Below, in pieces: positions 36,684-50,184 of a DNA stretch of 64,000 nt; the stretch's first letter is position 1; every line of letters begins with the position of its first letter. Made by a program: the position numbers and the translations under genes. The notes under the pieces were generated by a model. That model searched no databases, had not been told where the DNA came from, and saw only the letters and a list, made by a program, of their open reading frames with translations. Source of the stretch: Actinoplanes sp. M2I2 (GTDB lineage Bacteria; Actinomycetota; Actinomycetes; Mycobacteriales; Micromonosporaceae); assembly GCF_023544445.1 (NCBI RefSeq), contig NZ_JALPVJ010000004.1, positions 186,001 to 250,000 on the forward strand. The letters are read 5' to 3'.

Positions 36684-37541
36684 TCAGGAAGTGGCGGGAG
36701 CCGGCGCGGGCTCCGGGGCACGATCGGGCGTTTCCGACCGCTTCGGCCGGCTCGGCCACAGGAAGATCACCAGGACCGGGATGCCGTACGCGAGCCAGGC
36801 GATCGTCTCGATGACGGTGGGCGCGGGCGTGAAATTGACCATGCCGCGCAGCAGTTCGGCGTACCAGGCCCCGGGCGGCCAGGACGCGCTGACGTCGAAG
36901 GCCGTGGTGTTGAGGCCGGGCAGGATGCCGGCCTCCTGCAGGTCGTGGACGCCGTACTTGAGGATCCCGGCCGCCACGAGCACGAGCAGGGCCCCGGTCC
37001 AGGTGAAGAAGCGGCTCAGGTTGATCCGCAGGGCGCTGAGATAGAGGAGCCAGCCGAGCGCGACCGCGGTGAGCAGGCCCAGTGAGACGCCGATCAGCGG
37101 GCGCACGCTGTCGGTGGTGCCCTGCGCGGCGGCGTAGAACAGGATCGAGGTCTCGAGCCCCTCACGGACCACGGCGAGGAACGCGACGCCGACGATGGCG
37201 AGCGGCCCCACCCCGATCGCGTCCTCCATCCGGCCGCGCAGCTCGCGGCCCATGTGCCGGGCCATCCGCCGCATCCAGAAGATCATCCAGGTCACGAAGG
37301 TGACGGCGACGATCGAGGCGACCGCCTCGAACAGCTCCTGGTGCGTGAACGAGAGCCGGGCGACCCCGAACTGCAGCAGCGCCGCGAACCCGATCGACAG
37401 GACCGCGGCCACGGCGACACCGGCCCAGACCCATCGGAGGAGCGGCTTGCGATCCGACTTGACGAGGAACGCCACGAGGATCGAGACCACGAGCGTGATC
37501 TCGAGCCCCTCACGCAGCCCGATCAGGTAGATGGCCGTCAT
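36684..37541 (-). CDS. efeU: FTR1-family iron permease EfeU
   Basis: The 285-residue protein starts at MTAIYLIGLREGLEITL; seven upstream codons in the longer frame would overlap the iron box. It has seven hydrophobic helices and both RExxE motifs of the Ftr1/EfeU family, REGLEITL (about residues 10-17) and REGLETSIL (about 134-142), which pass Fe(III) through the membrane. A Pro-rich cytoplasmic tail ends the protein. As first gene of efeUOB it lies directly under an IdeR/DtxR-like operator. Confidence 0.95.
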   Translation of the reverse strand: MTAIYLIGLREGLEITLVVSILVAFLVKSDRKPLLRWVWAGVAVAAVLSIGFAALLQFGVARLSFTHQELFEAVASIVAVTFVTWMIFWMRRMARHMGRELRGRMEDAIGVGPLAIVGVAFLAVVREGLETSILFYAAAQGTTDSVRPLIGVSLGLLTAVALGWLLYLSALRINLSRFFTWTGALLVLVAAGILKYGVHDLQEAGILPGLNTTAFDVSASWPPGAWYAELLRGMVNFTPAPTVIETIAWLAYGIPVLVIFLWPSRPKRSETPDRAPEPAPAPATS

Positions 37542-37549
37542 CGAACTCC

Positions 37550-37568
37550 TCAGGTAAGCCAACCCTTA
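37550..37568. promoter_or_regulatory. IdeR/DtxR-type iron box upstream of efeUOB
   Basis: On the minus strand TAAGGGTTGGCTTACCTGA matches the 19-bp IdeR/DmdR consensus TWAGGTWAGSCTWACCTWA at 16 of 19 positions by my alignment. It ends 9 bp before the efeU start, so iron-loaded repressor would block the operon promoter or leader. Iron repression of efe genes by IdeR-like proteins is established in actinobacteria. Confidence 0.75.
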
Positions 37569-37813
37569 CTACACTGAGGCTCACTTTCTTTTATTCGCTT
37601 GTAGAAGTCAACTCACGTCGAATGAATCACGCCGGCTCCTGACCAGCTCGCTGCCCGAGCCGCTCGGCAGGACGGTGCCGAAGCGGAGCACAGCGAAAAA
37701 TCACCCGGCAGCAGACCGGCATCAGTCGACTACGCTAGGTTCACTGGCCGCCAGAGGCCGCTCGTCGGGCCCGCCCGGCCGCGGCAGTCGAGTCGTGGAC
37801 GGGGTTCGAGGCT

Positions 37814-39700
37814 ATGCGGGTTCAGCCACGCCAGCAGTTGCTGGACATCTGGGAGGCCATCGCACGATCCTCCTGGAGAAATGGCGAGTGGGTCTCCGGC
37901 GGACGACTCGGCGGCAACTCGATCAGCGATGCCGAGCAGTTGCTGTGCCTGCTTCTCCCGGCCACCCAGATCGAGACGTTCAACCTGGACCGTCCCGATC
38001 AGACAGCCGACCGAATGGTTCATGCGCTGCGCCGGATGGGAACCGCGACCGATATCCCGCGCATCGTCACCAAGATCCTGAACGACTATTTCGAGCGGTA
38101 CACCGAGGAAGGCGCCCCGATTTTCTCGGGCGGCGGCTACTACGAGCTGCTCGACACCGAGGACGCCGACAAGACGGCCCCCGCAGAGCTGACGACGTTG
38201 CCGATAGTCGACTCCTACGCGCTCTCGATCACGCTCTCGCTGGCCACTCTGGGTTTCGTCCGGGTCTATCGCCGCTCGGTGACGCGCGAGGACGTGCGCG
38301 CGGCCATCGGTCAGCTCGAGGCGGCGGCCAGCGTCCGGCTCAGCGCGGCCATGGTCGGCCTGCTGCGCAGCTTCTCGGTGAACGTCTTCGCCGTCGACTC
38401 CGACGAGGGCAACCGGCTCTGCACGACCGTCAACCAGAACGGTCTGCCCCGGCGGTCGGTGGTCGCCCAGTTGCACAACAAGCTCCGGCAGACGATCGCC
38501 AGCTTCCGCGAGGTGCTCATCGGCTCCGGTCAGACCTCCGACCTGGAACTGCCGGACCGGCTCTTCGAGTGCGGCTGGTCGTGGACCGTGGTCCGGGACG
38601 CTCCCCAGGTCGAGACGTCGGAGAAGATCGGCGAGCAGGAGCTCGGCGTCGGCCAGGACCAGCCCTATCTCTACTTCACGGTCATCGCGCTGAACGCGGT
38701 CGAGGACCTGTTCTCCGAGCGCACCCGCATCCTGGGCCTGCTCAACGAGGAACAGCAGCGCCTGGCCCGTGCGCTCCAGCTCCGGTCCGACCTGACCCGC
38801 ACCTACTGGGCGACGGTCGCGACCTTCGGCGAGGGCGGCAAGTGGCCGCTGGAGAACATCCCGTGGCGCACCACCAACGGGGAACAGTCGGACTACTTCA
38901 CGCTTCAGGTGACGGCCCTCGCGGTGAAGGGGCTGGAGCAGCTCCGGGGCAGCGACGCCGAGCTCGCCCGGGTCGGCCGCGTCCTCGCCACCCTGGCCGA
39001 GCGCGCCCGCATCACCAGCCGCGCCGTCGCAAACGACCCCAACCTGGTCATGCACTACCCGGGCGTACGGCTGGCTCTGGTCGGCAGCGACGAGCCGGCG
39101 CTCGACACCGACGAGAAACGACCGCTGCTGGCCTGGTCGGTGCCGGAATTCGCGGCCTTGCTCCTGCTCCGGTCGGCCAACGTCGCCAACCTCATCAACG
39201 ACCCGGACGAACGGTCGCGCCTGCTCGACCTGGGTGACGAGGTGTGGGACCACCTCGCCCGGCGGCGGCTGGGCCGGGGCGACGGCGCCGGGCTGTGGGA
39301 CGACCCGTTCCGGGTCTTCTCCGACCTGGCCGAGGTCTTCCCCGAGGCGGCCCACGCCGAGCGGGGCGCGTCCTGGTATTACACCGAGCGTGTCGTCGAG
39401 GCGCTGGTGGCGGTGGCCAAAGTGCTCGATCAGCCGCCCACCCGCGACGATGGCCTGACGCAGTACGCGGTCGACCTGCTGCGCGAGGCGGAACAGATCT
39501 ACGACCGCGAGCTACTCAGCGGCAGCGCCGAGGGCGGCCCCCAGCTCCGCAACACCTTGCAGAAGGTCGAGAGCACGCTGCGCCGGGCCCGGGAGATCTT
39601 GGCCGAGCGTCCGGGCACCGCGGCCGCACTGGCCATCGACATCCTGCGGGAGCTCGATCGGCTCGAAGCCGCCCGGGACGACCTCGCCACGGAGGTCTGA
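37814..39700 (+). CDS. SCO2524-like protein, first gene of an uncharacterised module
   Basis: The 628-residue soluble protein lacks a signal peptide or membrane span and I see no catalytic motif. It resembles the Streptomyces SCO2524 family in length and in opening (QPRQQLLDIWEAIARSSW, then GGRLGGNSISDAEQLLCLL). The middle is alpha-helical (LHNKLRQTIASFREVL; RILGLLNEEQQRLARAL), and Trp/Tyr patches such as RTYWATVATFGEGGKWPLE recur. The C-terminal ~60 residues form a likely coiled coil (NTLQKVESTLRRAREILAE). It is followed after 3 bp by the variant P-loop gene and probably forms a complex with it. The family match is from memory and no function is known. Confidence 0.7.
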   Translation: MRVQPRQQLLDIWEAIARSSWRNGEWVSGGRLGGNSISDAEQLLCLLLPATQIETFNLDRPDQTADRMVHALRRMGTATDIPRIVTKILNDYFERYTEEGAPIFSGGGYYELLDTEDADKTAPAELTTLPIVDSYALSITLSLATLGFVRVYRRSVTREDVRAAIGQLEAAASVRLSAAMVGLLRSFSVNVFAVDSDEGNRLCTTVNQNGLPRRSVVAQLHNKLRQTIASFREVLIGSGQTSDLELPDRLFECGWSWTVVRDAPQVETSEKIGEQELGVGQDQPYLYFTVIALNAVEDLFSERTRILGLLNEEQQRLARALQLRSDLTRTYWATVATFGEGGKWPLENIPWRTTNGEQSDYFTLQVTALAVKGLEQLRGSDAELARVGRVLATLAERARITSRAVANDPNLVMHYPGVRLALVGSDEPALDTDEKRPLLAWSVPEFAALLLLRSANVANLINDPDERSRLLDLGDEVWDHLARRRLGRGDGAGLWDDPFRVFSDLAEVFPEAAHAERGASWYYTERVVEALVAVAKVLDQPPTRDDGLTQYAVDLLREAEQIYDRELLSGSAEGGPQLRNTLQKVESTLRRAREILAERPGTAAALAIDILRELDRLEAARDDLATEV

Positions 39701-39703
39701 CCC

Positions 39704-40624
39704 GTGCTCATCTTCGCCGCGTCCGACAAGGGCGGCACCGGCCGCTCGGTGACCAGCAGCAACGTGGTCTATCGCAGCGCGCTGCAGGGCAACGACGTCT
39801 GCTACCTCGACTTCGACTTCGGCTCGCCGACCTCCGGCGCCGTCTTCGACCTGGTCTCCGCCGAACGCGGCATCAAGGGCGCGTCCGGACTGCATTCCTA
39901 TTTCCAGGGGCTCGCGGCCGAGCCGCAGCGGTTGGAGATCTGGGAGGAGTCCGACCGCCGGGAGCTGCGCGGCCGTCCGGGCGGCGCCGGCCGGATGGTG
40001 TTGATGCCGGGCGACGTCGACGGCGGGGAGTTCGCGGCCACCAACGAGATGATCGAGCGGTGCCGGGCGCTCTTCCTCCGGCTGGACGAGGAGTTCGACC
40101 TCTGCCTGGTCGACCTGAGCGCCGGCCGGTCGCACGCGCTCGAGATGGTGCTGGCGGCCACAGCCCACCCTTCGCTGCAGGCCGTCAAGTGCCGCTGGCT
40201 GATCTACCACCGCTGGACCCGGCAGCACGTGATCGCGGCGTCCGGCCTGGTCTACGGCGACAGCGGCATCCTCAACACCGGCACGCACCTCGGTCACGTC
40301 GCCCGCGATCTCAAGGAGTCGCTCCGGTTCGTTCACACGGCGGTCGTCGATCCGGATTCGACCGAGCTGTCCGGGCTGCAACCGCAGCAGGTCGCCTGGC
40401 TGCGGGCCTGTGACGCCAACCTCAAGGAGCTGGCCGGCCAGCTGCGGGTCGGGCGCTCGCTCCAGCTGGGCTCGGTGCCCCTCGACCCGGTCCTGCAGTG
40501 GCGCGAGCAGCTCATCTCCGACGGCGATGTGCTGATGCGGGGCATCGCCAACGAGGCGACCAGGGACGCGTTCGAGACCCTGGCCAAGAAGATCGTGGAC
40601 GACTCAGCCTGGGAGCCGCAATGA
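39704..40624 (+). CDS. SCO2523-like variant P-loop (ParA/MinD-like) protein
   Basis: The 306-residue protein starts at GTG with GGAGG in the end of the previous gene. It opens like a SIMIBI ATPase: LIFAASDKGGTGRSVTSSN, where the deviant Walker A reads KGGTGRS instead of KGG-GKT/S, so the second lysine is arginine. A switch-like strand YLDFDFGSPTSGAVFD and DLCLVDLSAGRSHALE match the Walker A' and B positions of the fold. Later LKCRWLIYHRWTRQH-type (VKCRWLIYHRW) and LNTGTHLGHVARDLKE are family-specific. Such proteins bind nucleotide or only mimic the fold. It overlaps the next gene by ATGA and belongs to the SCO2521-2525-like block. Confidence 0.78.
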   Translation: MLIFAASDKGGTGRSVTSSNVVYRSALQGNDVCYLDFDFGSPTSGAVFDLVSAERGIKGASGLHSYFQGLAAEPQRLEIWEESDRRELRGRPGGAGRMVLMPGDVDGGEFAATNEMIERCRALFLRLDEEFDLCLVDLSAGRSHALEMVLAATAHPSLQAVKCRWLIYHRWTRQHVIAASGLVYGDSGILNTGTHLGHVARDLKESLRFVHTAVVDPDSTELSGLQPQQVAWLRACDANLKELAGQLRVGRSLQLGSVPLDPVLQWREQLISDGDVLMRGIANEATRDAFETLAKKIVDDSAWEPQ

Positions 40625-41595
40625 CGAGTCCCTGGTCAGTGGACGCCACCGAGTCGGTGGCACAGCGCCGCGCGCAATCGACTCCCCTGTCCCACCTCTC
40701 GATCGAGCTGGGCCATCTCTACTCCGAGGAGTTCCGGAACGGCCCGGAGAGCCTGGCCCGCTACTTCGAGCGGATCATTCCGTGGATCGAGGCGGCTTCG
40801 AGCATCCTGCGTCAGCGGGTGCCGCGCGGGCGGCCCCGCATCAGCACCTGCTTCCTGGTCGACGACTACTTCGCGCGGTTCAGCTCGCCGGCCGAGGTGC
40901 TGCCTCAGCTGATCAAGGCAGCCGAGACCCAGAACATCACCATCGACTACATCGCCCGCGAGTCCGGCTGCGCCGTGGCCGACGGCGTTCCCCTGGCCGA
41001 CCTCGTCCTCAGCCGGATCGTCCCCGACCCGTCACCGGACAGCACCGGCGTCCGGCCGCCGGTGACGGTGAGCGGGTGGCTGTGCAACGGCCGGCGCGGG
41101 CCGGAGGTCTCCAGTGGTCAAGCGATGGCCGCTCCCAGCCGGCAATGGCACCCGCCGGCCGAGAACGGCGCCCTGAACAGCCACTCGATCTTCGTCGACG
41201 TCCAGCTCTGGGACGAGGAGGCCGGCGCCCGGACGTGGTCGTGCCCCTACCTCGCGGCGATCTGGCAGTTGCTCCGGCTCGGCCTGATCCGGCACCACGG
41301 CGGCGTGGTCGCCGCGCCGGTCACGATGGAGCGGTTCCCCGAGGAGTGGGACCGTCTCCCGGCGATCGTGCAGGTCAATCCCCGGGCCGAGGCGTTCAGC
41401 GCCTACTCCACCTTCTCGGTGCTGGGCAACCGGTTCCTCAACGTCGAACATGCGGTCCGCACCATCCTGCAACAGGTCAACGTCGAGCAGGTGATCACCG
41501 ACCAGGTCCGCTCCCGCAGTGAACGCGAGGGCATGCCCCTGCCCGCCGAGTTGTGGCAGCGCATCGAATACCTCTTCGTGGCCGACCGCGACTGA
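40621..41595 (+). CDS. SCO2522-like protein
   Basis: The 324-residue protein overlaps the P-loop gene by ATGA and has no signal peptide. I recognise the SCO2522 family by context and by segments such as LSHLSIELGHLYSEEF, STCFLVDDYFARF and YLAAIWQLLRLGLI. The D-D-Y in LVDDYF and the W-rich AAPSRQWHPPAENG look conserved, yet no enzyme motif is evident. The C-terminal part has NRFLNVEHAVRTILQQV. Coupled expression with the SCO2524-like and P-loop proteins suggests a three-protein complex. The following gene converges on it with 4 bp between the stops. Confidence 0.68.
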   Translation: MTSPWSVDATESVAQRRAQSTPLSHLSIELGHLYSEEFRNGPESLARYFERIIPWIEAASSILRQRVPRGRPRISTCFLVDDYFARFSSPAEVLPQLIKAAETQNITIDYIARESGCAVADGVPLADLVLSRIVPDPSPDSTGVRPPVTVSGWLCNGRRGPEVSSGQAMAAPSRQWHPPAENGALNSHSIFVDVQLWDEEAGARTWSCPYLAAIWQLLRLGLIRHHGGVVAAPVTMERFPEEWDRLPAIVQVNPRAEAFSAYSTFSVLGNRFLNVEHAVRTILQQVNVEQVITDQVRSRSEREGMPLPAELWQRIEYLFVADRD

Positions 41596-41599
41596 CCGC

Positions 41600-42643
41600 T
41601 CAGGCCGCCGCTGGGGGCGGGCCCGGTCGGGCCGACGTGAACGTCGCCTGTTCCCTGGGGATGGCCGTCCCCTCCGGCGCCCTCGCCGCCTCCAGCAGCG
41701 CCATGGTGCGCAGGTTGAGGTGGTCGCGGATCCGGCCGACCGAGGTCCGCCACTGCTCGGAGAGTTTGGCCCGGCCGTCCAGGCTTTCCGACAGAGGCAG
41801 CAGCGCCGGGTCGAGACGGGCGCCGGGCATCCACAGATGCAGCAGGAACTCCACGGCGAGCCGCAGCCAGGTGGAGTCGGATCGGCCGGCCGGCGCGTCG
41901 AGACTGCGGTCGAGCAGGGTCAGCACGGTCGTCAGGAGCCAGTCGTGCAGGGCGAGCTCCTCGCACAGCGTCAGGATGGCCTGGACGGGAGCCGGGCCGC
42001 CGGTCCCGTGGCCGAGGTGGATCAGGAGCGTACGGACCGTCTTCGACTCGATGCTGAACGACGCGCTGTTGGAGCCGGCGGGGGCCGGCAGCACAGCCCA
42101 CCGCATGACCGTCCGGCTGCTGGTGAACGGCCGCCGGCGGTCGAGCACCCGCGACGCCTGGATCGTGTCGATGCCGCGGCTGCTGATCGCCCCGACGTCG
42201 ATCGTGGCGGCTGTCCGGACGCCCTCCAGAAAGCCCTCGGCGACGTCGAGCGGCTTCACCCGCCCGATCGGCTCCACGGTGCCCGGCCGGGCCAGGTAGT
42301 GCGACCAGGGCAGGCGCAGTCCGTGCTGATGGGCCGGGCCGACCGTCGTGTAGGCCGAACCCTGCACCAGATGGCCGCCGGTCACGGAGAAGTGGCTGGT
42401 GACCGTGCCGATGCTGCGGGTGCTGCGACGCGAGGACGAGGGCAGCAGACAGTCCACACCGGTCAGCTGGTCCGGCGACACGGCATGGGCTATCGGACGC
42501 TCGAAGCGGCGTACGCGTTCGCCGACGACAAGGTCCAGGAGGGCGGAGACACGGTCGCTCGACAACGCGGCCGAGTTCTGCAGGAGTCCGGTGTGGATCT
42601 CGCCGAAGGTCAGCACGCCGGCGCGCGCCGGTGCGGCACTCAC
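41600..42643 (-). CDS. SCO2521-like protein
   Basis: The protein of about 347 residues starts at GTG (adjacent TTG at 42646 possible) behind GGAGAGG. It matches my recollection of the SCO2521 family: VLTFGEIHTGLLQNSAAL near the N-terminus, IAHAVSPDQLTGVDCLLP, FSVTGGHLVQGSAY and a helical C-terminus (SEQWRTSVGRIRDHL). There is no membrane segment or recognised catalytic motif. It lies opposite to the other module genes, between the SCO2522-like gene (convergent) and the NACHT gene (divergent), with a 20-bp dyad in the shared promoter region. Confidence 0.66.
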   Translation of the reverse strand: MSAAPARAGVLTFGEIHTGLLQNSAALSSDRVSALLDLVVGERVRRFERPIAHAVSPDQLTGVDCLLPSSSRRSTRSIGTVTSHFSVTGGHLVQGSAYTTVGPAHQHGLRLPWSHYLARPGTVEPIGRVKPLDVAEGFLEGVRTAATIDVGAISSRGIDTIQASRVLDRRRPFTSSRTVMRWAVLPAPAGSNSASFSIESKTVRTLLIHLGHGTGGPAPVQAILTLCEELALHDWLLTTVLTLLDRSLDAPAGRSDSTWLRLAVEFLLHLWMPGARLDPALLPLSESLDGRAKLSEQWRTSVGRIRDHLNLRTMALLEAARAPEGTAIPREQATFTSARPGPPPAAA

Positions 42644-42751
42644 CAATCCCCTCTCCGATCATCTGTTATGGCGATTCCATCGCATTGCCCGGTCTTTTCA
42701 CAACCACCCGCCGGGTCATGTCGTTCTTCGACGCTGATCAATTGCCTTCGC

Positions 42752-42771
42752 CTGGTACGTTGAGTTACCAG
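42752..42771. promoter_or_regulatory. Dyad in the divergent promoter of the module
   Basis: CTGGTA and TACCAG form 6-bp inverted arms around an 8-nt centre. The site lies about 28 bp upstream of the NACHT gene and about 110 bp from the SCO2521-like start, suitable for a regulator acting on both. No regulator is encoded within the module. Confidence 0.4.
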
Positions 42772-42799
42772 ACGAGCGCGTTCGGCATGGGGGCGGGTG

Positions 42800-45700
42800 A
42801 TGACTCGGGCTTACCTGTCCTCCACCTACTCTGACCTGCGAGATTGCCGCGCCGCGGTCCGCATGGCCCTGGCCCGCCAGTCGGTCGAGCTCATCGCGAT
42901 GGAGGACTACACCGCCGACAACGCCCGCCCGCTCGACAAATGTCTGGCCGACGTGGCCAAATGCGATCTCTATATCGGCATCTTCGCGTGGCGTTACGGC
43001 TTCGTCCCCCAGGGGCACGACAAGTCGATCACCGAACTCGAATACCGCGAGGCCCGGCAGCGGGGCATCCCGTGCCTGATCTTCCTGCTGGACGACGACG
43101 CGCCCTGGCCCAAACCCGTGATCGACGTCGGCCGGCCCGGGAAGCGGATCGAGGCTCTGCGCGCCGAGCTCAAGCACGAGCACATGGTCAGCTTCTTCAC
43201 CGGCCCGGCCGACCTGCAGAGCGTGGCCGCCGCGGCGATCGGCAACCTGCGCGACGAGCGGTCGGTGCAGCCCCCGAAAGAGACCCTCAGCGTCGAGCGC
43301 CTGCGCCGGTACTACGACCGTCTCGCGCTGGCCTACGGGGGCCTCGACCTCGAGTCGCTGACCCCGCCCACCGAGGAATACCTGCACGTCAAGCTGACCT
43401 CGGTCTTCGTCGAGCCGCACGTGCGGGCCGATCCGCCACCGGCCGAGCTGCCGCGGGAGTGGCTCGAGCGGCTGCGCGATCGCGGTGAGCTCGACCCGGG
43501 CGACGTGCCCGGCCCCGTCGACCCGATCGAGCTGGCCAACCTGCACCAGTCGTACCGGGCCCGGCCGCTCCAACGGCTGTTCGACGTGATCGCCGCACCC
43601 GGCGAGCGGGCGACCGTCGTGCTCGGCGATCCGGGTTCGGGCAAGTCGACGGTGTCGCGCTATCTGGCCCTGAGCCTCACCGACGGCCGCAGCCGCCGGC
43701 TCCCGGCCGATCTCGCCGAGCACGTGCCGGTCCTGATCGAACTGCGGGCGTACGTCACCCTGGCCGCCGAGAAGCGATGCTCCGACTTTCTCGGCTACCT
43801 CGATCACCGCAGCCGCACCGACGGGCTCGGCCTCGAGCGCGGCGCCCTGGAGAACTATCTGCAGTCCGGCGGCCGGGCCCTGTTCATCTTCGACGGCCTC
43901 GACGAGGTGTTCGACCAGGGTGACCGCACCGAGATCGCGGAACGGATCGTCGAGTTCCGGGCGCGCAACCCGGGCATCCGGGTCGTCGTCACCTCGCGCA
44001 TTGTCGGCTACTCCCGGCGCGTCTTCACCGAGGCGAAATTCGACCACTACACCTTGCAGGATCTCGACCAGGATCAGATCGACGAGTTCCTGCGGCGGTG
44101 GTATCCTGGCCGGTCGCCGGAAAGCGCCGACCCGGCCGACGTCGACCGGGTCCGCAACCGGCTGGTCGAGGCGATGCGACAGTCACCGGCCCTGCGCGAG
44201 CTCGCCGGCAACCCGTTGTTGCTGACCATCCTGGCCATCATCGGGCGGCATCGGGTGCTGCCCCGCGACCGCCGCGCCCTCTACGACCACGCGACCACTG
44301 TGCTGGTCGAGAGCTGGGACGTGCACCGGCAGGTCGGCCTGCCCAACCAGCCCGACTACATCGACCTCGAGGACAAGAAGGCTTTGCTCCGGCAGCTCGC
44401 CTTCCACATGCAATCGTCGGACCGCACGCTCAGCGCCAACTACATCGAGCAGGTCGATCTGCAGAAGGTCTTCGAGAGCTACCTGCGCAGTCGTTACGAC
44501 ATGCGCGTCCGGGACGCTCGGCCCGCGGCCCGGAAGATGATCGAGCAGTTCCGCTCCCGCAACTTCATCCTGAGCCGCTACGGCCTGGACATCTACGGCT
44601 TCGTGCACCGCACGTTCCTGGAGTACTTCTGCGCCGAGGCGATTGTCGCCAAGTTCCAGCACGATCAGCAGTGGCGGATGCCGGAGATCAGCCGCCAGTT
44701 CCTCGACCACTGGGCCGACCCCTCGTGGCGCGAGGTGCTGCGGCTGGTGGTCAGCTCGCTGCACGAGGCGCACACCGCCGAGGTGGTCAGGCTCCTGGTC
44801 GATGAGATCAACACCGAGTGGCCGCCGGGCCGGTTCAGCCCGCTGCCGTGGAACCTGGCCCTCGCCGTGCAGTGCCTGGGTGAGGCCAAGACCCTGCACG
44901 GCGCGCTGGCCGGCCCGGCCGAGGCGGTGCTCAAGAAGGTCATCCTCCTGCTGGAGCACAGCGCCGGCCGCCACGACCCCGATCTGGCCGCTCTGCTGGC
45001 CGACGAGATCCTGCCCGCCGCCCGGTCGATCGGGGCTCGGTGGCCGGGCCGGCAGAAATACCTCAAGTGGTACAGACGTCGCGGCGTACGGCTGGTCTGG
45101 AGTCCGACGATGAGCCTGGCCGCCCAGCTCGCGGCCATCCTGGCCGTGCCCGCCGATCACCTCGAGGAGCTCTTCGACGGCGAGCTGGCCCAGATCGGCG
45201 ACCACCGGGCGGCCTACGCGGCCGTCGTCGGCCTGGCCGACCTGGCCGGGCCCCGACCGGCCGAGTCCCCGGCCCGCGAGCTGCTCATCCGCCGCGTCTC
45301 GGCCGACCGGCACAAGGCCGTACGCCTCGCCGCCGTGCAGGCGCTCGGTGAACGTTTCGGCGTCGACGACGGGCTCGCTCAGGTTCTGATCGAGCGGGCG
45401 GTGCAGGACCCGTCCGGCGGGGTCCGGCAGGCGGCGGTGCGAGCGCTGGGCGAGCGGCACGAACCATCGCCCCGGGTCCGTGCCCTGCTGAGCGGTCGCG
45501 CGATCGACGATCCGGCCGCCGCCGTGCGCCGCGAGGCCGTACAGCTCCTGGCCCGGCGGTTCCCGAGTGACGCGGAGCTCAAGGACGTCCTGCTCGAGGT
45601 GCTCGAGGAGGATCCGGACGCCGATGTGGTGACCGCGGCCGCGCAGGCCCTGGTCGACCAGTTCGACACCCGCGACGACGTGTGGTTGTTGCTCATGGTG

Positions 45701-47152
45701 CGGGCCGGGGACGACGCCGAGGGGGCGGTGCGGCGGGCGGCCGTGGGGCTGCTCGGCGAGCGGTGGTCCGGTGATCGAGCGGTGGTCGATCTGCTGCTGG
45801 CCGCCCTGACCGACGAGAAGGACGCGGCGGCTCTGCGCGAGACGGCCCGCTGCTTCCTGTCCCGCGCGCTCGAGTCGGAACGGCGGACCGCCCGCACCAA
45901 GCTCATCTCACGACTGTCCCAGGACCCGAACGAGGACATCCGCCTCGCCGCTGTGCAGGCACTTACCGAGCAGTTCCCCGACGACCCGGAGACGCGGGCC
46001 GCCACCTTGGAGCGGGCCGCGTCGGACAGCGACGCCGACGTCCGGCTGGCCGCGGTCACCGCTCTGGTCCGGTGGGCGCCGGGCGACGACGACGCGATCC
46101 TCACCGCGCTCGAAAGCCGAGCGATCGAGGACCGGGACAGGACGGTGCGTGGCGCCGCCCTGAACGGGCTTGTCGCGGCCCGGTGGGAGGGCGCGGGCGC
46201 CCACGCACTGCTGAGCCGCGTCGCCGTGGAGGACATCGAAGCGCCGCTGCGGGAACAGGCCGTCCGGGTGCTGGCCGAACGGCACGGCGGTAACAGCGCG
46301 GCCCAGCAGCTGATCGCCGACCGGTGCCGCAACGACCACAACCGCGACGTACGCCTGGCCGCCGCCCAGGTGCTGGCCCAGCTCGACGACGTCGTCGACA
46401 CCGCGTCGGCAACCCTGATCGACCGGGTGCACAACGACAAGAGCGGCCGGGTCTTCGCCTGCGCGGCCGAGGCGGTCAGCGACTGGCTCGGGGCCGGCGG
46501 CGCCGGACGGGCCGCCCTGATCCGGCGAGCCGGCGAGGACAGCACCGCCCACGTCCGTTCCGCGGCCGCCCGGTTCCTGGGCCGGCTGTACGCCGACGAC
46601 GCCGAGGTCCGTGAGGTGCTGATCAGGCTGGTCCGCGACGACCTGGACGCCGACGTGGTCGAGACCGCCGGTACCGCGCTGGCCGCGTCGGCCGAGGAGG
46701 ACCCGGACGCGTCGGCCGAGCAGGTGACCGCTCTGATCGAGCGGGCCGAAGGTGCCGATCCCAGCGTTCAGCTGGCCGCGATGCGGGTACTAGGAGAGTG
46801 CTACGCGCATGAGCGGGAGTCGTTCACCACGCTTCTGCGCGCGGCCCGCCGCGATGAGGAGACTCTCGTCCGGCGGGAAGCCCTGAGTCTCCTGGTGCGG
46901 AAGTTCACCCATCGGAGGGGTGTACGTGAGGCCCTGACCGCCGGTCTGCACGACCCGGACTGGTCGGTCCGCGAGGCGGCGGTACGGCTCCTGGCGGAGC
47001 ACTTCCGCGCCGACAGCCGCACCTGGCGGCAGCTCGCTGCGTTGGCCGCGGACACCGCGGACGTCCGGCTCAGCCTGCTTGCCGGGCAGACCCTCAGCCG
47101 GCTCCCGGACGCGGAGCCCGACCGCATGCCGACCCTGCGGCGGTCCGGCTGA
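42800..47152 (+). CDS. STAND NTPase: DUF4062-NACHT-HEAT-repeat protein
   Basis: The 1450-residue protein starts at ATG 42800 (GTG 42797 also fits). Residues 1-100 are a DUF4062 domain (RAYLSSTYSDLRDCR, ECDLYIG-like KCDLYIGIFAWRYG, SITELEYREA), a flavodoxin/TIR-like N-terminal effector or adaptor. The NACHT module has Walker A GDPGSGKST (about 276-284), Walker B ALFIFDGLDEVFD (about 358-370) and sensor region VVVTSRIVGYSR. From about 770 to the end run some 15 HEAT-like repeats of roughly 35-40 residues (VRLAAVQALGERF, VRREAVQLLARRF and similar). STAND proteins are off-state switches that sense a ligand with repeats and oligomerise. The trigger and output are unknown; phage defence or developmental control are possible. 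Confidence 0.9.
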   Translation: MTRAYLSSTYSDLRDCRAAVRMALARQSVELIAMEDYTADNARPLDKCLADVAKCDLYIGIFAWRYGFVPQGHDKSITELEYREARQRGIPCLIFLLDDDAPWPKPVIDVGRPGKRIEALRAELKHEHMVSFFTGPADLQSVAAAAIGNLRDERSVQPPKETLSVERLRRYYDRLALAYGGLDLESLTPPTEEYLHVKLTSVFVEPHVRADPPPAELPREWLERLRDRGELDPGDVPGPVDPIELANLHQSYRARPLQRLFDVIAAPGERATVVLGDPGSGKSTVSRYLALSLTDGRSRRLPADLAEHVPVLIELRAYVTLAAEKRCSDFLGYLDHRSRTDGLGLERGALENYLQSGGRALFIFDGLDEVFDQGDRTEIAERIVEFRARNPGIRVVVTSRIVGYSRRVFTEAKFDHYTLQDLDQDQIDEFLRRWYPGRSPESADPADVDRVRNRLVEAMRQSPALRELAGNPLLLTILAIIGRHRVLPRDRRALYDHATTVLVESWDVHRQVGLPNQPDYIDLEDKKALLRQLAFHMQSSDRTLSANYIEQVDLQKVFESYLRSRYDMRVRDARPAARKMIEQFRSRNFILSRYGLDIYGFVHRTFLEYFCAEAIVAKFQHDQQWRMPEISRQFLDHWADPSWREVLRLVVSSLHEAHTAEVVRLLVDEINTEWPPGRFSPLPWNLALAVQCLGEAKTLHGALAGPAEAVLKKVILLLEHSAGRHDPDLAALLADEILPAARSIGARWPGRQKYLKWYRRRGVRLVWSPTMSLAAQLAAILAVPADHLEELFDGELAQIGDHRAAYAAVVGLADLAGPRPAESPARELLIRRVSADRHKAVRLAAVQALGERFGVDDGLAQVLIERAVQDPSGGVRQAAVRALGERHEPSPRVRALLSGRAIDDPAAAVRREAVQLLARRFPSDAELKDVLLEVLEEDPDADVVTAAAQALVDQFDTRDDVWLLLMVRAGDDAEGAVRRAAVGLLGERWSGDRAVVDLLLAALTDEKDAAALRETARCFLSRALESERRTARTKLISRLSQDPNEDIRLAAVQALTEQFPDDPETRAATLERAASDSDADVRLAAVTALVRWAPGDDDAILTALESRAIEDRDRTVRGAALNGLVAARWEGAGAHALLSRVAVEDIEAPLREQAVRVLAERHGGNSAAQQLIADRCRNDHNRDVRLAAAQVLAQLDDVVDTASATLIDRVHNDKSGRVFACAAEAVSDWLGAGGAGRAALIRRAGEDSTAHVRSAAARFLGRLYADDAEVREVLIRLVRDDLDADVVETAGTALAASAEEDPDASAEQVTALIERAEGADPSVQLAAMRVLGECYAHERESFTTLLRAARRDEETLVRREALSLLVRKFTHRRGVREALTAGLHDPDWSVREAAVRLLAEHFRADSRTWRQLAALAADTADVRLSLLAGQTLSRLPDAEPDRMPTLRRSG

Positions 47153-47213
47153 TCCGTTCGGCCACCCTCGTAAAGGCAGCCGACGATCACATCGTTTCCC
47201 GTAAAGTTGTTGA

Positions 47214-48080
47214 ATGGAGTTGTTCGAAGGTTGGCCTAGGTTTCGAAGGTATGATCAGGCGACGCAGCACGGCACGGTGGCGCAGATCGCCGACCCGCCT
47301 GCGGTCACCATGGCTCTGAACTGGGACGCCTTCCAACCCGAGCTGTACTGGAGGCAAAACTACGCCTTCTTCCGGGCCGACGACCGGCGCTTCCTCGAAC
47401 TGCTCCGGGAATTCTTCGGCGCCGAGTCGCCTCGTACCGACATGAAGCGTCTGGGCATCGATGTCGGCGCCGGCGCCAATCTCTATCCGACACTGGCTAT
47501 GCTTCCGCTGTGCGACGAGATCACGCTTATGGAGTACGGCGCCAAGAATTGCGAGTGGCTGCATAACGAGGTGCAGGGCTATTCGTCGCACTGGAATCAG
47601 TTCTGGCGCCTGCTACGCGAAAAGCCGGAGTATGCGAAGTTCGGCGCCAATGTCCGACGTCGGCTCGCGCGCACCGCGAAAGTGCGGCAGGGCAGCCTTT
47701 TCACCCTGCCCGAGCAGGAAGAGCGCTACCACGTCGGAACGATGTTCTTCGTGGCCGAGTCGATCACCGACAACGCCGAGCAGTTCTACGGAGCCCTCGA
47801 CGCGTTCCTCGCCAGCCTGGCGCCCGGCGCTCCCTTCGCGGCCGCCTTCATGCGCAACTCGGATGGCTACGTCGTGGGCGACCAGAAATTCCCGGCGTTC
47901 CAGATCGACGAGAGCGACATCAGCGACTATCTCAGCGGCGCCGCTCGCGATCACCGATGCGTGGCGGTCGACCAGCGGGGGCAGTTCATCAACGGCGACA
48001 ACGTTCCCGACAAAGCCAACACGTGGACGCTGCGAGCCGGATACGACGGCATGATTTTAGCGCTGGGACACGCCAAGTAG
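47214..48080 (+). CDS. SCO2525-like SAM-dependent methyltransferase (NNMT/PNMT/TEMT type)
   Basis: The 288-residue protein lies 61 bp after the NACHT gene with little ribosome-binding signal; two TCGTAAAG/CCGTAAAG words precede the ATG and leaderless expression is possible. The opening WDAFQPELYWRQNYAFF recalls the YxxxYL N-terminal region of amine methyltransferases related to NNMT. LGIDVGAGANLYPTLAM is SAM motif I, ITLMEYGAKNCEWL supplies the acidic ribose contact, and MFFVAESITDNAEQF resembles the post-II/III region. It probably methylates a small amine or nicotinamide-like substrate. I place it in the SCO2525 family from memory. Confidence 0.8.
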   Translation: MELFEGWPRFRRYDQATQHGTVAQIADPPAVTMALNWDAFQPELYWRQNYAFFRADDRRFLELLREFFGAESPRTDMKRLGIDVGAGANLYPTLAMLPLCDEITLMEYGAKNCEWLHNEVQGYSSHWNQFWRLLREKPEYAKFGANVRRRLARTAKVRQGSLFTLPEQEERYHVGTMFFVAESITDNAEQFYGALDAFLASLAPGAPFAAAFMRNSDGYVVGDQKFPAFQIDESDISDYLSGAARDHRCVAVDQRGQFINGDNVPDKANTWTLRAGYDGMILALGHAK

Positions 48081-48171
48081 GGGGCAGGCGCCACTGACGC
48101 ATTGATCATCATGAGCGTGCGACGGGTTCCGGATATTCACGGATGCCGGGGTATGCCGTTACGCTCAGCTC

Positions 48172-49137
48172 ATGAATCGCCGCTCCCGGGACGCCATTGT
48201 GGTCGGCGGTGGCGTATCCGGCCTGACCACAGCCTTGTGTCTGGCCGAGACGGGCTACTCGGTACGGGTCTGGGCAGCCGACCAGGCGACCGATACGACG
48301 TCCTACGCCGCCGGCGCCATCTATTCGCCGTTCCTGGTCGACGACGATCGCACCTCGACGTGGGCCGAGCAGACGTTCGTCGAGCTGGAAACCCTGGCCC
48401 ACGACCGCGACCAGGAAACCGGCGTGACGATGGTCCCCGGGCTCCAAGTCTGCCGGGGCCCAGCTCAGCCGCCCGACGGGGCGACCAAGGTGCCCAGCTT
48501 CCGGCAGTGCGAGCGACCGGAACTGCCGGCCGGTTTCGTGAGCGGCTGGAGCTACACGGTCCCTCTCGTCGACATGCCGCTCTATTTGCGCTATCTGCAG
48601 AACGTTCTGGTCGAGAAGTACGGCGGAACCGTCGAGCAACGGCGCATCTCCACACTGGAGGAACCGGCCTCGGCCGCTTCCGTGGTCGCCAATTGCACCG
48701 GCATGGGAGCACGGGAGTTAGTGCCGGATCCGGCGCTGCACCCCATTCGCGGCGAGCTCGTCGTCGTCAGCAATCCGGGCATCACGCGCTTCGTGGCCGA
48801 GCATTCCAAAACGGATCGCGAACTGACCTACCTCCTTCCGCACCGTGATGTGGTCGTGCTGGGCGGCACCGCCGACGAGGAACGCTGGGATCTCGCGCCC
48901 GACGAGGCGGTGGCGGAGGGCATCATCGCCCGGTGCGCCGAGATCGAGCCGAGCGTGCGGGACGCCAAGGTCCTGGCCCACCGCGTAGGCATCCGTCCGG
49001 CCCGCGACCGGGTCCGGGCCGAACGCGCGAGCCTCAACGGCGACGGCACCGTGGTGCTGCACAACTACGGGCACGGCGGCTCGGGCGTGAGCATCTCGTG
49101 GGGTTGCGCGCGCTACGTGGTCGGCCTGCTCGACTGA
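48172..49137 (+). CDS. D-amino-acid-oxidase-like FAD oxidoreductase
   Basis: The 321-residue protein has the FAD Rossmann site IVVGGGVSGLTTALCLAE (residues 9-26) and the DAO layout: NCTGMGARELVPD, HPIRGELVVV, VGIRPARDRVR (substrate-carboxylate arginine) and NYGHGGSGVSISWGCA (C-terminal FAD motif). It would oxidise D-amino acids or related imino acids to keto acids, ammonia and peroxide. No export signal is seen. It follows the methyltransferase gene by 91 bp on the same strand and may share its transcript, but whether it belongs to the SCO252x-like module is uncertain. Confidence 0.88.
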   Translation: MNRRSRDAIVVGGGVSGLTTALCLAETGYSVRVWAADQATDTTSYAAGAIYSPFLVDDDRTSTWAEQTFVELETLAHDRDQETGVTMVPGLQVCRGPAQPPDGATKVPSFRQCERPELPAGFVSGWSYTVPLVDMPLYLRYLQNVLVEKYGGTVEQRRISTLEEPASAASVVANCTGMGARELVPDPALHPIRGELVVVSNPGITRFVAEHSKTDRELTYLLPHRDVVVLGGTADEERWDLAPDEAVAEGIIARCAEIEPSVRDAKVLAHRVGIRPARDRVRAERASLNGDGTVVLHNYGHGGSGVSISWGCARYVVGLLD

Positions 49138-49239
49138 CCGCCCGCCTTCCCTCGGCCCTCGGCCGCGCCGGCCGGTAAGCCGCGTGACAACCTCCGGAGA
49201 GCGGGTATCCGACTCGTCAGACACCGGCGAGAGGTCACC

Positions 49240-50184
49240 ATGAGCACTCTGGGCAGCAGCGGCATCGAGGTGTTCCCGCTCAACCTCGGCGGCAACGTCT
49301 TCGGCTGGACCAGCGACGAAGCGACCTCGCACCGGGTTCTGGACGCCTACACCGAGGGCGGGGGCAACTTCCTCGACACCGCGGACGGCTATTCGGCCTG
49401 GGTGCCGGGCAACTCCGGGGGCGAGTCCGAGACGATCATCGGCACCTGGCTGGCGGCCCGCGGGCACCGTGACCGCGTCGTTCTGGCCACCAAGGTCAGC
49501 CAGCACCCGCAGTTCCGGGGACTGTCCGCGGCCACCGTCGCGGCCGCCGCCGACGCGTCGCTCACCCGTCTCCGGACGGATTACATCGACCTGTACTACG
49601 CGCACTACGACGATGAGAACACCCCGCTCGAGGAGACCGCCGGCGCCTTCGACGCCCTGGTCAAGGCGGGCAAGGTACGGGCCGTCGGCGTCTCGAACTA
49701 CACCGCCGACCGGATCCGGGAGTGGTTCGAGGTCGCGCGGCGCAACGGCTTTGTGCTGCCTGTCGCTGTACAGCCGCACTACAACCTGGTCGCCCGTCGG
49801 GCCTACGAGCAGAACATCGCCCCGGTCGCGACCGACGAGAACCTGGCCGTGCTGCCCTACTACGCGCTGGCGAGCGGCTTCCTCACCGGTAAGTACCGGA
49901 CGACCGAGGACCTCAGCCACGGATCCCGCGGCGGGGGTGCCCGGGCCTACCTGACCGAGGACGGCCTGGCCGTGATCAAGGTGCTGAGCGACGTCGCCGA
50001 CGCCCACGGCGTCGAGCCCGCGTCGGTGGCGCTCGCCTGGTTGCGTACGCGGCCGGGGGTTGCCGCCCCGATCGCGAGCGCCCGCACCGTCGAGCAGCTG
50101 CCGGCGCTGCTCGCCTCGGCGACGCTCGAGTTGACCGCCGACGAGACCGCCGCGCTCGACGAAATCTCCGGCCGGGCCTTCTGA
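49240..50184 (+). CDS. Aldo/keto reductase
   Basis: The 314-residue TIM-barrel oxidoreductase keeps the AKR tetrad: D and Y in FLDTADGYSAW, K in VVLATKVSQ and H in LYYAHYDDE. The NADPH-binding end is seen in VAPIASARTVEQL. The ATG follows GAGAGGTCACC. It most resembles the AKR11/12-like group with sugar or aldehyde substrates. No operon partner is evident and the gene is followed by a hairpin terminator. Confidence 0.93.
   Translation: MSTLGSSGIEVFPLNLGGNVFGWTSDEATSHRVLDAYTEGGGNFLDTADGYSAWVPGNSGGESETIIGTWLAARGHRDRVVLATKVSQHPQFRGLSAATVAAAADASLTRLRTDYIDLYYAHYDDENTPLEETAGAFDALVKAGKVRAVGVSNYTADRIREWFEVARRNGFVLPVAVQPHYNLVARRAYEQNIAPVATDENLAVLPYYALASGFLTGKYRTTEDLSHGSRGGGARAYLTEDGLAVIKVLSDVADAHGVEPASVALAWLRTRPGVAAPIASARTVEQLPALLASATLELTADETAALDEISGRAF

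What the first reader, a model, noticed from the sequence alone, without database searches (positions are those of the whole stretch)
37814..49137. SCO2521-SCO2525-like module with an embedded STAND NTPase: candidate undescribed system
Four proteins without known function (SCO2524-, SCO2523-, SCO2522- and SCO2521-like) and an NNMT-like methyltransferase (SCO2525-like) lie together with a DUF4062-NACHT-HEAT protein and a D-amino-acid-oxidase-like enzyme. Three genes are translationally coupled, one is divergent. The mixture of a variant P-loop switch, a STAND sensor and a small-molecule methyltransferase looks like a regulated signalling or conflict system. To my knowledge no function has been assigned to this neighbourhood; the family names are from memory.
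Basis: partly seen in the sequence, partly recalled or inferred. Interest (0 to 1): 0.88.

Follow-up and report, generated by a model that had tools for sequence, protein, structure and literature searches.

The report
NLR-like gene in conserved actinobacterial module
A set of five little-studied genes, conserved in many filamentous soil bacteria, carries in this genome and some relatives a large protein built like an animal or plant immune receptor with a predicted NAD-destroying head, in a place where other species mostly keep a small membrane protein instead.

Summary
All five SCO252x names hold above NCBIfam's curated cut-offs; the large protein is DUF4062-NACHT-HEAT. The module is conserved: in 150 Micromonosporaceae genomes, 84 of 86 SCO2524 loci have SCO2521 within 15 kb. 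The STAND gene is an optional but not a chance member: 25 of 30 DUF4062-NACHT relatives found lie within 15 kb of SCO2524. It sits at SCO2521, where most other loci have a predicted membrane DUF6879 protein; no locus examined has both (28 intact and 1 broken STAND versus 58 of 95; 25 versus 40 of 86). On the SCO2524 tree this needs one exchange. DUF4062 is reported as a TIR-like NADase of phage defence and human TEP1 (preprint PMC13174449); the likely catalytic Glu is kept in 28 of 28 intact copies. Best reading: an immune-type NADase receptor replaced the membrane output protein of this module. NADase activity, sensing and coupling to the module are inferred. 'No function assigned' is partly wrong: SCO2525 is cited for a developmental phenotype.

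The parts
37814..39700 (+). SCO2524-family protein, 628 aa; mostly helical model, weakly like alpha/alpha-barrel enzymes
   Evidence: NCBIfam NF040567, 846 bits; AlphaFold2 pLDDT 88.9; Foldseek: no hit at E<=0.001; among the first hits two designed proteins (0.015, 0.018), GH76 mannanase 6shm (0.021), endocellulase CelF (0.031), cellobiose 2-epimerase (0.056)
39704..40624 (+). SCO2523-family variant P-loop NTPase, MinD/ParA/Mrp-like, KGGTGRSVT motif
   Evidence: NF040564, 483 bits; motif invariant in 22 of 22 aligned; PDB profile hit Mrp-type 2ph1 1.3e-5
40621..41595 (+). SCO2522-family protein, no recognisable fold match; start overlaps the SCO2523 stop (ATGA)
   Evidence: NF040566, 427 bits; no PDB sequence hit at E<=1; AlphaFold2 pLDDT 81.5; no Foldseek hit at E<=0.001; overlap read
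41600..42646 (-). SCO2521-family protein, inverted relative to SCO2522
   Evidence: NF040565, 338 bits; no PDB sequence hit at E<=1
42647..42796 (.). shared intergenic region between divergent SCO2521 and STAND genes
   Evidence: sequence read; no sigma-70-type promoter match found in 37500-49300
42797..47152 (+). DUF4062-NACHT-HEAT STAND protein, 1451 aa
   Evidence: Pfam; 28 intact copies, this one included, at SCO2521 in the 95 loci
42809..43054 (+). DUF4062, predicted TIR-like NADase domain
   Evidence: PF13271; PDB profile hits KpSwz 10wc E 1.6e-7, TEP1 11gz 6.3e-5
43040..43042 (+). codon of Glu82, candidate catalytic glutamate
   Evidence: E in 28 of 28 intact STAND copies; the KpSwz chain 10wc has Ala in this column, read as the E97A mutant of PMC13174449 (inference)
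43610..44104 (+). NACHT NTPase domain, P-loop GDPGSGKST and DGLDE motif
   Evidence: PF05729; G277, G282, K283, D366, D369, E370 invariant in 11 of 11 aligned
45347..47056 (+). HEAT repeat region (approximate bounds), likely sensor
   Evidence: PF13646, 10 stretches; least conserved part, 0.36 mean identity versus 0.64 for DUF4062 among 12 representatives
47214..48080 (+). SCO2525-family NNMT/PNMT-like methyltransferase
   Evidence: NF040568, 285 bits, cut-off 240; PDB NNMT 9e-9, PNMT 1.6e-7
48172..49137 (+). D-amino-acid-oxidase-like FAD enzyme
   Evidence: PF01266 2.7e-37; a relative lies in 36 of 95 fetched stretches

Best explanation
The window holds a derived type of the SCO2521-SCO2525 module. 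SHOWN by sequence comparison: the core SCO2524-2523-2522-2521 is conserved as a cluster; in most loci examined it is accompanied by a predicted membrane DUF6879 protein beside SCO2521; in one lineage of Micromonosporaceae that place is taken by a STAND protein with DUF4062, NACHT and HEAT parts, and the two were not found together there. INFERRED: the STAND protein works like an NLR-type immune receptor. [quoted passage not shown] FURTHER INFERRED: the core, with its variant MinD-like P-loop protein SCO2523 as switch and SCO2525 as a small-molecule methyltransferase, controls or licenses whichever output protein fills the place, the membrane DUF6879 protein in one type and the NADase receptor in the other.
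For: Cluster conservation and linkage. Exclusive occupancy: 28 intact + 1 broken STAND versus 58 DUF6879 of 95 loci, none with both at SCO2521; 25 versus 40 of 86, none with both within 15 kb of SCO2524, Fisher p 3e-9 without correction for kinship. One exchange on the SCO2524 tree when loci with neither are left out; the STAND lineage is one clade of 33 rows, SH-aLRT 99. STAND distances follow those of SCO2524/2523/2522/2521, r 0.98-0.99 for 28 loci, 0.90-0.96 for 14 representatives. DUF4062 NADase and antiphage activity: PMC13174449 (abstract, part 1 of Results, legends and passages read). Homology to KpSwz and TEP1 and conserved Glu82. DUF4062 most conserved, HEAT least, as in a receptor with fixed effector and diversifying sensor. 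Three unlinked relatives have a further C-terminal P-loop ATPase plus TIR region (two by Pfam; the third by its similar tail); the TIR of the one scanned against PADLOC matches ThsB, 3.8e-16.
Against: Linked genes inherited together co-diverge whatever they do, so argues against repeated independent insertion, not for a joint function; the DUF6879 protein itself follows the core less closely (r 0.85 to SCO2524, 0.65 to SCO2521, 48 loci). The exchange is seen only once, so exclusivity rests on one event plus its retention. 5 of 30 DUF4062-NACHT relatives are not near SCO2524, the four read lack the core, and L035 keeps the core without STAND, so neither part strictly needs the other. 21 of 86 family loci have neither output protein. 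In PMC13174449 the human DUF4062-NACHT proteins NWD1, NWD2 and NPHP3 showed no NADase activity, only TEP1 did. PADLOC gives only weak hits to the seven proteins (best 6.4e-5, OloA, on the HEAT region). The cited phenotype of SCO2525 is developmental, not defence.
Confidence: 0.45

Rival explanations
1. Passenger: the STAND gene is a self-contained NADase defence receptor that once inserted beside SCO2521 and has been inherited with a developmental or metabolic locus without working with it. Loss of the DUF6879 gene in that lineage is coincidental.
For: Single exchange on the tree; relatives without the core exist; single-gene DUF4062 systems suffice for defence in PMC13174449.
Against: Kept at SCO2521 in 28 intact loci of several genera although gene order and orientation around it vary; no locus examined keeps both output genes there.
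Confidence: 0.3
2. Development module: SCO2521-2525 controls hyphal growth and differentiation, and the STAND protein is a developmental cell-death or checkpoint protein rather than an antiviral one.
For: SCO2525 cited as required for normal growth and morphogenesis, operon sco2521-sco2526 in the HupS regulon; SCO2524_fam is found in only 16 of 158 class genomes, and the named hosts are largely mycelial genera (habit recalled).
Against: The HEAT region diverges more than the other parts and relatives carry a TIR domain, both common in immunity (recalled).
Confidence: 0.3
3. Small-molecule pathway: SCO2524, the methyltransferase and the FAD oxidase make or modify a metabolite, and the STAND protein is its regulator.
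For: Methyltransferase and DAO families; SCO2524 model resembles carbohydrate-active enzymes weakly.
Against: No Foldseek match at E<=0.001 for SCO2524; SCO2525 and DAO are optional, 62 and 36 of 95 fetched stretches; the STAND protein has a NADase-type head and no DNA-binding domain among its Pfam hits.
Confidence: 0.12

Closest known systems
SCO2521-SCO2525 families (NCBIfam NF040564 to NF040568), named after Streptomyces coelicolor
   Same: All five families present above curated cut-offs.
   Different: The S. coelicolor locus itself was not fetched; its order is inferred from the gene numbers. Against the commonest orders: SCO2525 moved downstream, DUF6879 partner absent from the locus, STAND gene in its place; inverted SCO2521 and a DAO gene occur in other Micromonosporaceae too.
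Swarozyc, DUF4062 NADase defence (PMC13174449, preprint 2026)
   Same: N-terminal DUF4062 with the candidate catalytic Glu.
   Different: KpSwz has a short winged-helix auxiliary domain that binds the phage portal; here NACHT and HEAT parts follow, and the gene sits in a conserved chromosomal module.
Human TEP1 / NWD1 / NWD2 / NPHP3 (DUF4062-NACHT proteins)
   Same: DUF4062 next to NACHT; TEP1 DUF4062 is hit.
   Different: Several have WD40 repeats, here HEAT; TEP1 acts in the vault particle.
Bacterial NLR-like receptors (bNACHT, Avs)
   Same: N-terminal effector-type domain, central STAND NTPase, C-terminal repeats (layout of the class recalled); NACHT motifs intact.
   Different: Linked to the SCO252x core; no bNACHT or Avs model among the PADLOC hits.

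Membership tests
SCO2521-SCO2525 module | All five NCBIfam equivalogs in one cluster | tested here: met
   all between 37814 and 48080
SCO2521-SCO2525 module | A DUF6879 gene next to SCO2521 and SCO2525 upstream of SCO2524, as in the commonest orders | tested here: not met
   window order 2524> 2523> 2522> 2521< STAND> 2525> DAO>; no DUF6879 relative in the window
Swarozyc (DUF4062 NADase defence) | DUF4062 TIR-like domain | tested here: met
Swarozyc (DUF4062 NADase defence) | Catalytic glutamate | tested here: met
   Glu82, 28 of 28 intact STAND copies; 16 of 17 plus-strand DUF4062 domains (one of them the window itself), the 17th match stops before this column. Equivalence to E97 of KpSwz is inferred
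Swarozyc (DUF4062 NADase defence) | Short winged-helix portal-binding auxiliary domain | tested here: not met
   NACHT and HEAT instead
Swarozyc (DUF4062 NADase defence) | NAD+ hydrolysis and phage protection | not testable with these tools
   needs experiment
NLR-like STAND receptors | Intact Walker A and B of NACHT | tested here: met
   GDPGSGKST and DGLDE; G277, G282, K283, D366, D369, E370 invariant in 11 of 11
NLR-like STAND receptors | C-terminal repeat sensor | tested here: inconclusive
   repeats present, 10 HEAT_2 stretches; that they sense anything is not tested
NLR-like STAND receptors | Trigger-dependent oligomerisation | not testable with these tools
   needs experiment
Nicotinamide N-methyltransferase | NNMT/PNMT/TEMT homology | tested here: met
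   PF01234 1.6e-8; NNMT chains 9e-9
Nicotinamide N-methyltransferase | Nicotinamide-contacting residues (Asp197, Ser201, Tyr204, Ser213 of human NNMT, numbers and roles recalled) | tested here: inconclusive
   In the alignment Ser201 and Tyr204 face invariant Ser216 and Tyr219, but Asp197 faces Phe (17 of 19 sequences) and Ser213 faces invariant Ala228: substrate may not be nicotinamide
MinD/ParA NTPases | KGGxGK[ST] deviant Walker A (recalled) | tested here: not met
   KGGTGRS, the second Lys is Arg in 22 of 22; the family is reached only weakly

The most novel reading that the evidence does not exclude
SCO2521-2524 is a general control core with an exchangeable output: a membrane DUF6879 protein in most actinobacterial loci, and in one Micromonosporaceae lineage a TEP1/NLR-like NAD-destroying receptor. 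A developmental control module would then have been rewired to immune-type NADase death, and the core would be the licensing or guarding device for both outputs.
Probability: 0.3. Interest if true: 0.85.

Novelty: new variant of a known kind. Interest (0 to 1): 0.62.

Why it matters
For SCO2521 to SCO2524 no function was found in the searches made here. A natural exchange between a membrane protein and a predicted NADase receptor at one position gives a testable handle: whatever the core does should be readable through two different outputs. It also offers bacterial DUF4062-NACHT proteins of the layout seen in human TEP1, NWD1, NWD2 and NPHP3, of which only TEP1 showed NADase activity in PMC13174449.

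Tried and rejected
Chance neighbourhood: rejected. STAND as a fixed member: rejected, 29 of 95 and 25 of 86. Nicotinamide clearance by SCO2525 as partner of the NADase: attractive, but SCO2525 is present in 42 of the 66 loci without STAND (62 minus 20), and two nicotinamide contacts are not kept. SCO2522 as relative of DUF6879, SCO2521 or SCO2523: profile comparison gave probabilities of 1.3, 1.2 and 0.2 percent. SCO2522 fold: no match at E<=0.001. SCO2524 fold: only weak matches. A third occupant of the place: of the 21 family loci with neither output protein 13 belong to one small-genome genus (code g94); in the two of these that were read (L148, L149) the gene next to SCO2521 has a C-terminal glyoxalase-like domain by Pfam and hydrophobic stretches by eye, and L150 of another genus (g97) has a similar-looking neighbour that was not scanned; not pursued. 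L154 and L155 have an unassigned frame between SCO2522 and SCO2521; L151 lacks SCO2522 and SCO2521. Plasmids: no tblastn match of SCO2524 in 72,556 PLSDB records, though one locus (L098) bears 'plasmid' in its title; the STAND protein has 7 partial matches under 60 percent identity, none covering 80 percent. Paper searches for gene and family names gave no functional study of SCO2521-2524 (open-access PMC only).

Limits: the 80 loci are the best of 431 relatives, thus biased towards the window. One search scored at most 7 candidates per genome and used E<=1e-60, so unlinked STAND relatives are undercounted; 14 further NACHT-only hits, none near SCO2524, were counted apart. For one search split pieces of one SCO2524 or SCO2521 gene were counted once; the 30 DUF4062-NACHT hits include one partial (G219) and one split copy (G276). 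In one search minus-strand DUF4062 loci were read on the wrong strand and are left out of the counts. An earlier arrangement table used HMMs built on over-extended frames and was replaced. L107 was dropped before counting as identical to L019. Absence of SCO2525 or DAO means absence from the fetched stretch, some of which are short. The membrane prediction of the DUF6879 protein is a hydropathy scan: two segments in P0012, at least one in 61 of 63 members, two or more in 29 of 63.
Full report
OBSERVATION. The window lies in a 9.58 Mb genome whose closest SCO2524 relatives in GTDB contigs are Actinoplanes/Paractinoplanes species (81-84 percent identity). The seven genes are present at the stated coordinates, and all five SCO252x names hold above NCBIfam's own cut-offs. 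The large protein has DUF4062, NACHT and HEAT repeats. SCO2523 and SCO2522 overlap as ATGA, SCO2524 and SCO2523 are 3 bases apart, SCO2521 is reversed and shares 150 bp upstream with the STAND gene.

CONSERVATION. SCO2524_fam occurs in 16 of 158 genomes drawn from the class and 84 of 150 from the family; none of the 14 control genomes has it. The 15 class loci taken out at 20 kb all hold 2524-2523-2522-2521, and none holds a STAND or DAO relative at the threshold used. A scan of GTDB genome contigs gave 431 relatives, of which the best 80 were kept. Of 95 loci (15 + 80 + window, minus one duplicate), 94 have SCO2523, 92 SCO2522, 92 SCO2521, 62 SCO2525, 36 DAO, 29 STAND and 58 a DUF6879 protein in the fetched stretch. 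In the family sample, which was not chosen by likeness to the window, 84 of 86 SCO2524 loci have SCO2521 within 15 kb, and 84 of 86 SCO2521 loci have SCO2524.

THE EXCHANGEABLE PLACE. In loci without STAND, the gene beside SCO2521 (after it when co-directional, between SCO2522 and SCO2521 when SCO2521 is inverted) is usually a protein with N-terminal hydrophobic segments and a C-terminal DUF6879. In 28 loci with an intact copy and one with a broken copy (L034) a STAND relative is there: directly next to SCO2521 in 25 of these 29, with a DAO gene between in 4 (L044, L045, L049, L050). No locus has both at SCO2521; L067 has STAND in the place and a distant DUF6879 relative upstream. In the family sample, 25 SCO2524 loci have STAND within 15 kb, 40 DUF6879, none both, 21 neither. 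Of the 21, 13 belong to one small-genome genus; the two read have another kind of neighbour. On the SCO2524 tree the STAND/DUF6879 difference needs one change when loci with neither are left out; the STAND lineage (28 intact, L034 broken, L035 without, L036, L080 and L081 with degenerate clusters) is one clade of 33 rows, SH-aLRT 99. Root direction is not proven; DUF6879 as the older state is inferred from its wider spread. STAND distances follow the core (r 0.98-0.99), which is what joint descent predicts; DUF6879 distances follow it less closely (0.85 and 0.65).

THE STAND PROTEIN. Of 30 family-sample hits that begin in DUF4062 and reach into NACHT, 25 are within 15 kb of SCO2524. Of the five others, four were read: no core gene lies in the 18-20 kb taken. 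Three of them (L144-L146) carry a further C-terminal P-loop ATPase and TIR domain (two by Pfam; L145 by its similar tail) and nest inside the Plantactinospora part of the linked tree; the fourth, L147, has more HEAT repeats and no TIR hit. DUF4062 itself matches in 18 of 158 class genomes, 17 over the cut-off; apart from the window none of these matches is within 15 kb of a SCO2524 place. The DUF4062 part matches KpSwz and TEP1 chains in the PDB. PMC13174449 (preprint; abstract, part 1 of Results, legends and passages read) reports that DUF4062 is a TIR-like NADase, gives phage defence in E. coli, and is active in human TEP1 but not in NWD1, NWD2 or NPHP3. The glutamate at window residue 82 is kept in 28 of 28 intact copies; the neighbouring Glu80 is His in three. 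The deposited KpSwz chain has Ala at the Glu82 column, which I read as the E97A mutant named in the paper. NACHT motifs are intact. Conservation falls from DUF4062 (0.64) over NACHT (0.52) to HEAT (0.36) among 12 representatives.

THE CORE. SCO2524 gives a confident, mostly helical model with only weak matches to alpha/alpha-barrel, sugar-active enzymes and to designed proteins. SCO2523 is a MinD/Mrp-like P-loop protein with an invariant KGGTGRSVT motif whose usual second lysine is arginine. SCO2522 and SCO2521 have no sequence relative in the PDB at E<=1; the SCO2522 model has an unordered middle (residues 134-181) that holds invariant residues, and no fold match. SCO2525 is NNMT/PNMT-like.

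KNOWN FUNCTION. PMC6344877 and PMC11472566 (passages only) cite Gehring et al. 2004 (not held, not read) for SCO2525 as a methyltransferase with a role in growth and morphogenesis; PMC11472566 lists operon sco2521-sco2526 in the HupS regulon; PMC3017869 (passage) mentions mutagenesis of SCO2525. Name searches found no functional study of SCO2521-2524.

CONCLUSION. The step from this pattern to a mechanism is inference; the passenger and developmental readings remain open.

Noticed in passing
L144:9610-15774, L145:1774-7803, L146:9086-15433: Relatives of the STAND protein away from the module with a further C-terminal P-loop ATPase plus TIR domain, so DUF4062 and TIR in one chain (L144 and L146 by Pfam; L145 by its similar tail).
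   Followed up: partly
L148:8386-9972, L149:9883-11691: In one small-genome Micromonosporaceae genus the neighbour of SCO2521 has a C-terminal glyoxalase-like domain; L150:9921-11489 of another genus looks similar but was not scanned.
   Followed up: partly
G000 contig C66:2770-3693: The window's genome holds a DUF6879-protein relative away from the module (286 bits).
   Followed up: no
window 36684-37562 and 49240-50184: EfeU iron permease and aldo-keto reductase flank the cluster; EfeU also in L034, L035, L037 and the reductase in L034, L035.
   Followed up: partly
window 26942-31705, minus strand: 1587-aa open frame; an open frame of the same length lies upstream of the degenerate cluster in L036.
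   Followed up: no
L044 and L047: Dactylosporangium vinaceum has two diverged STAND-type clusters in one chromosome.
   Followed up: no
L113: Paractinoplanes toevensis has further copies of SCO2525, SCO2524, DUF6879 and DAO relatives at one locus.
   Followed up: no
window 50559-52640, minus strand: Ricin-type lectin, fn3 and glucose/sorbosone dehydrogenase domains in one protein.
   Followed up: no
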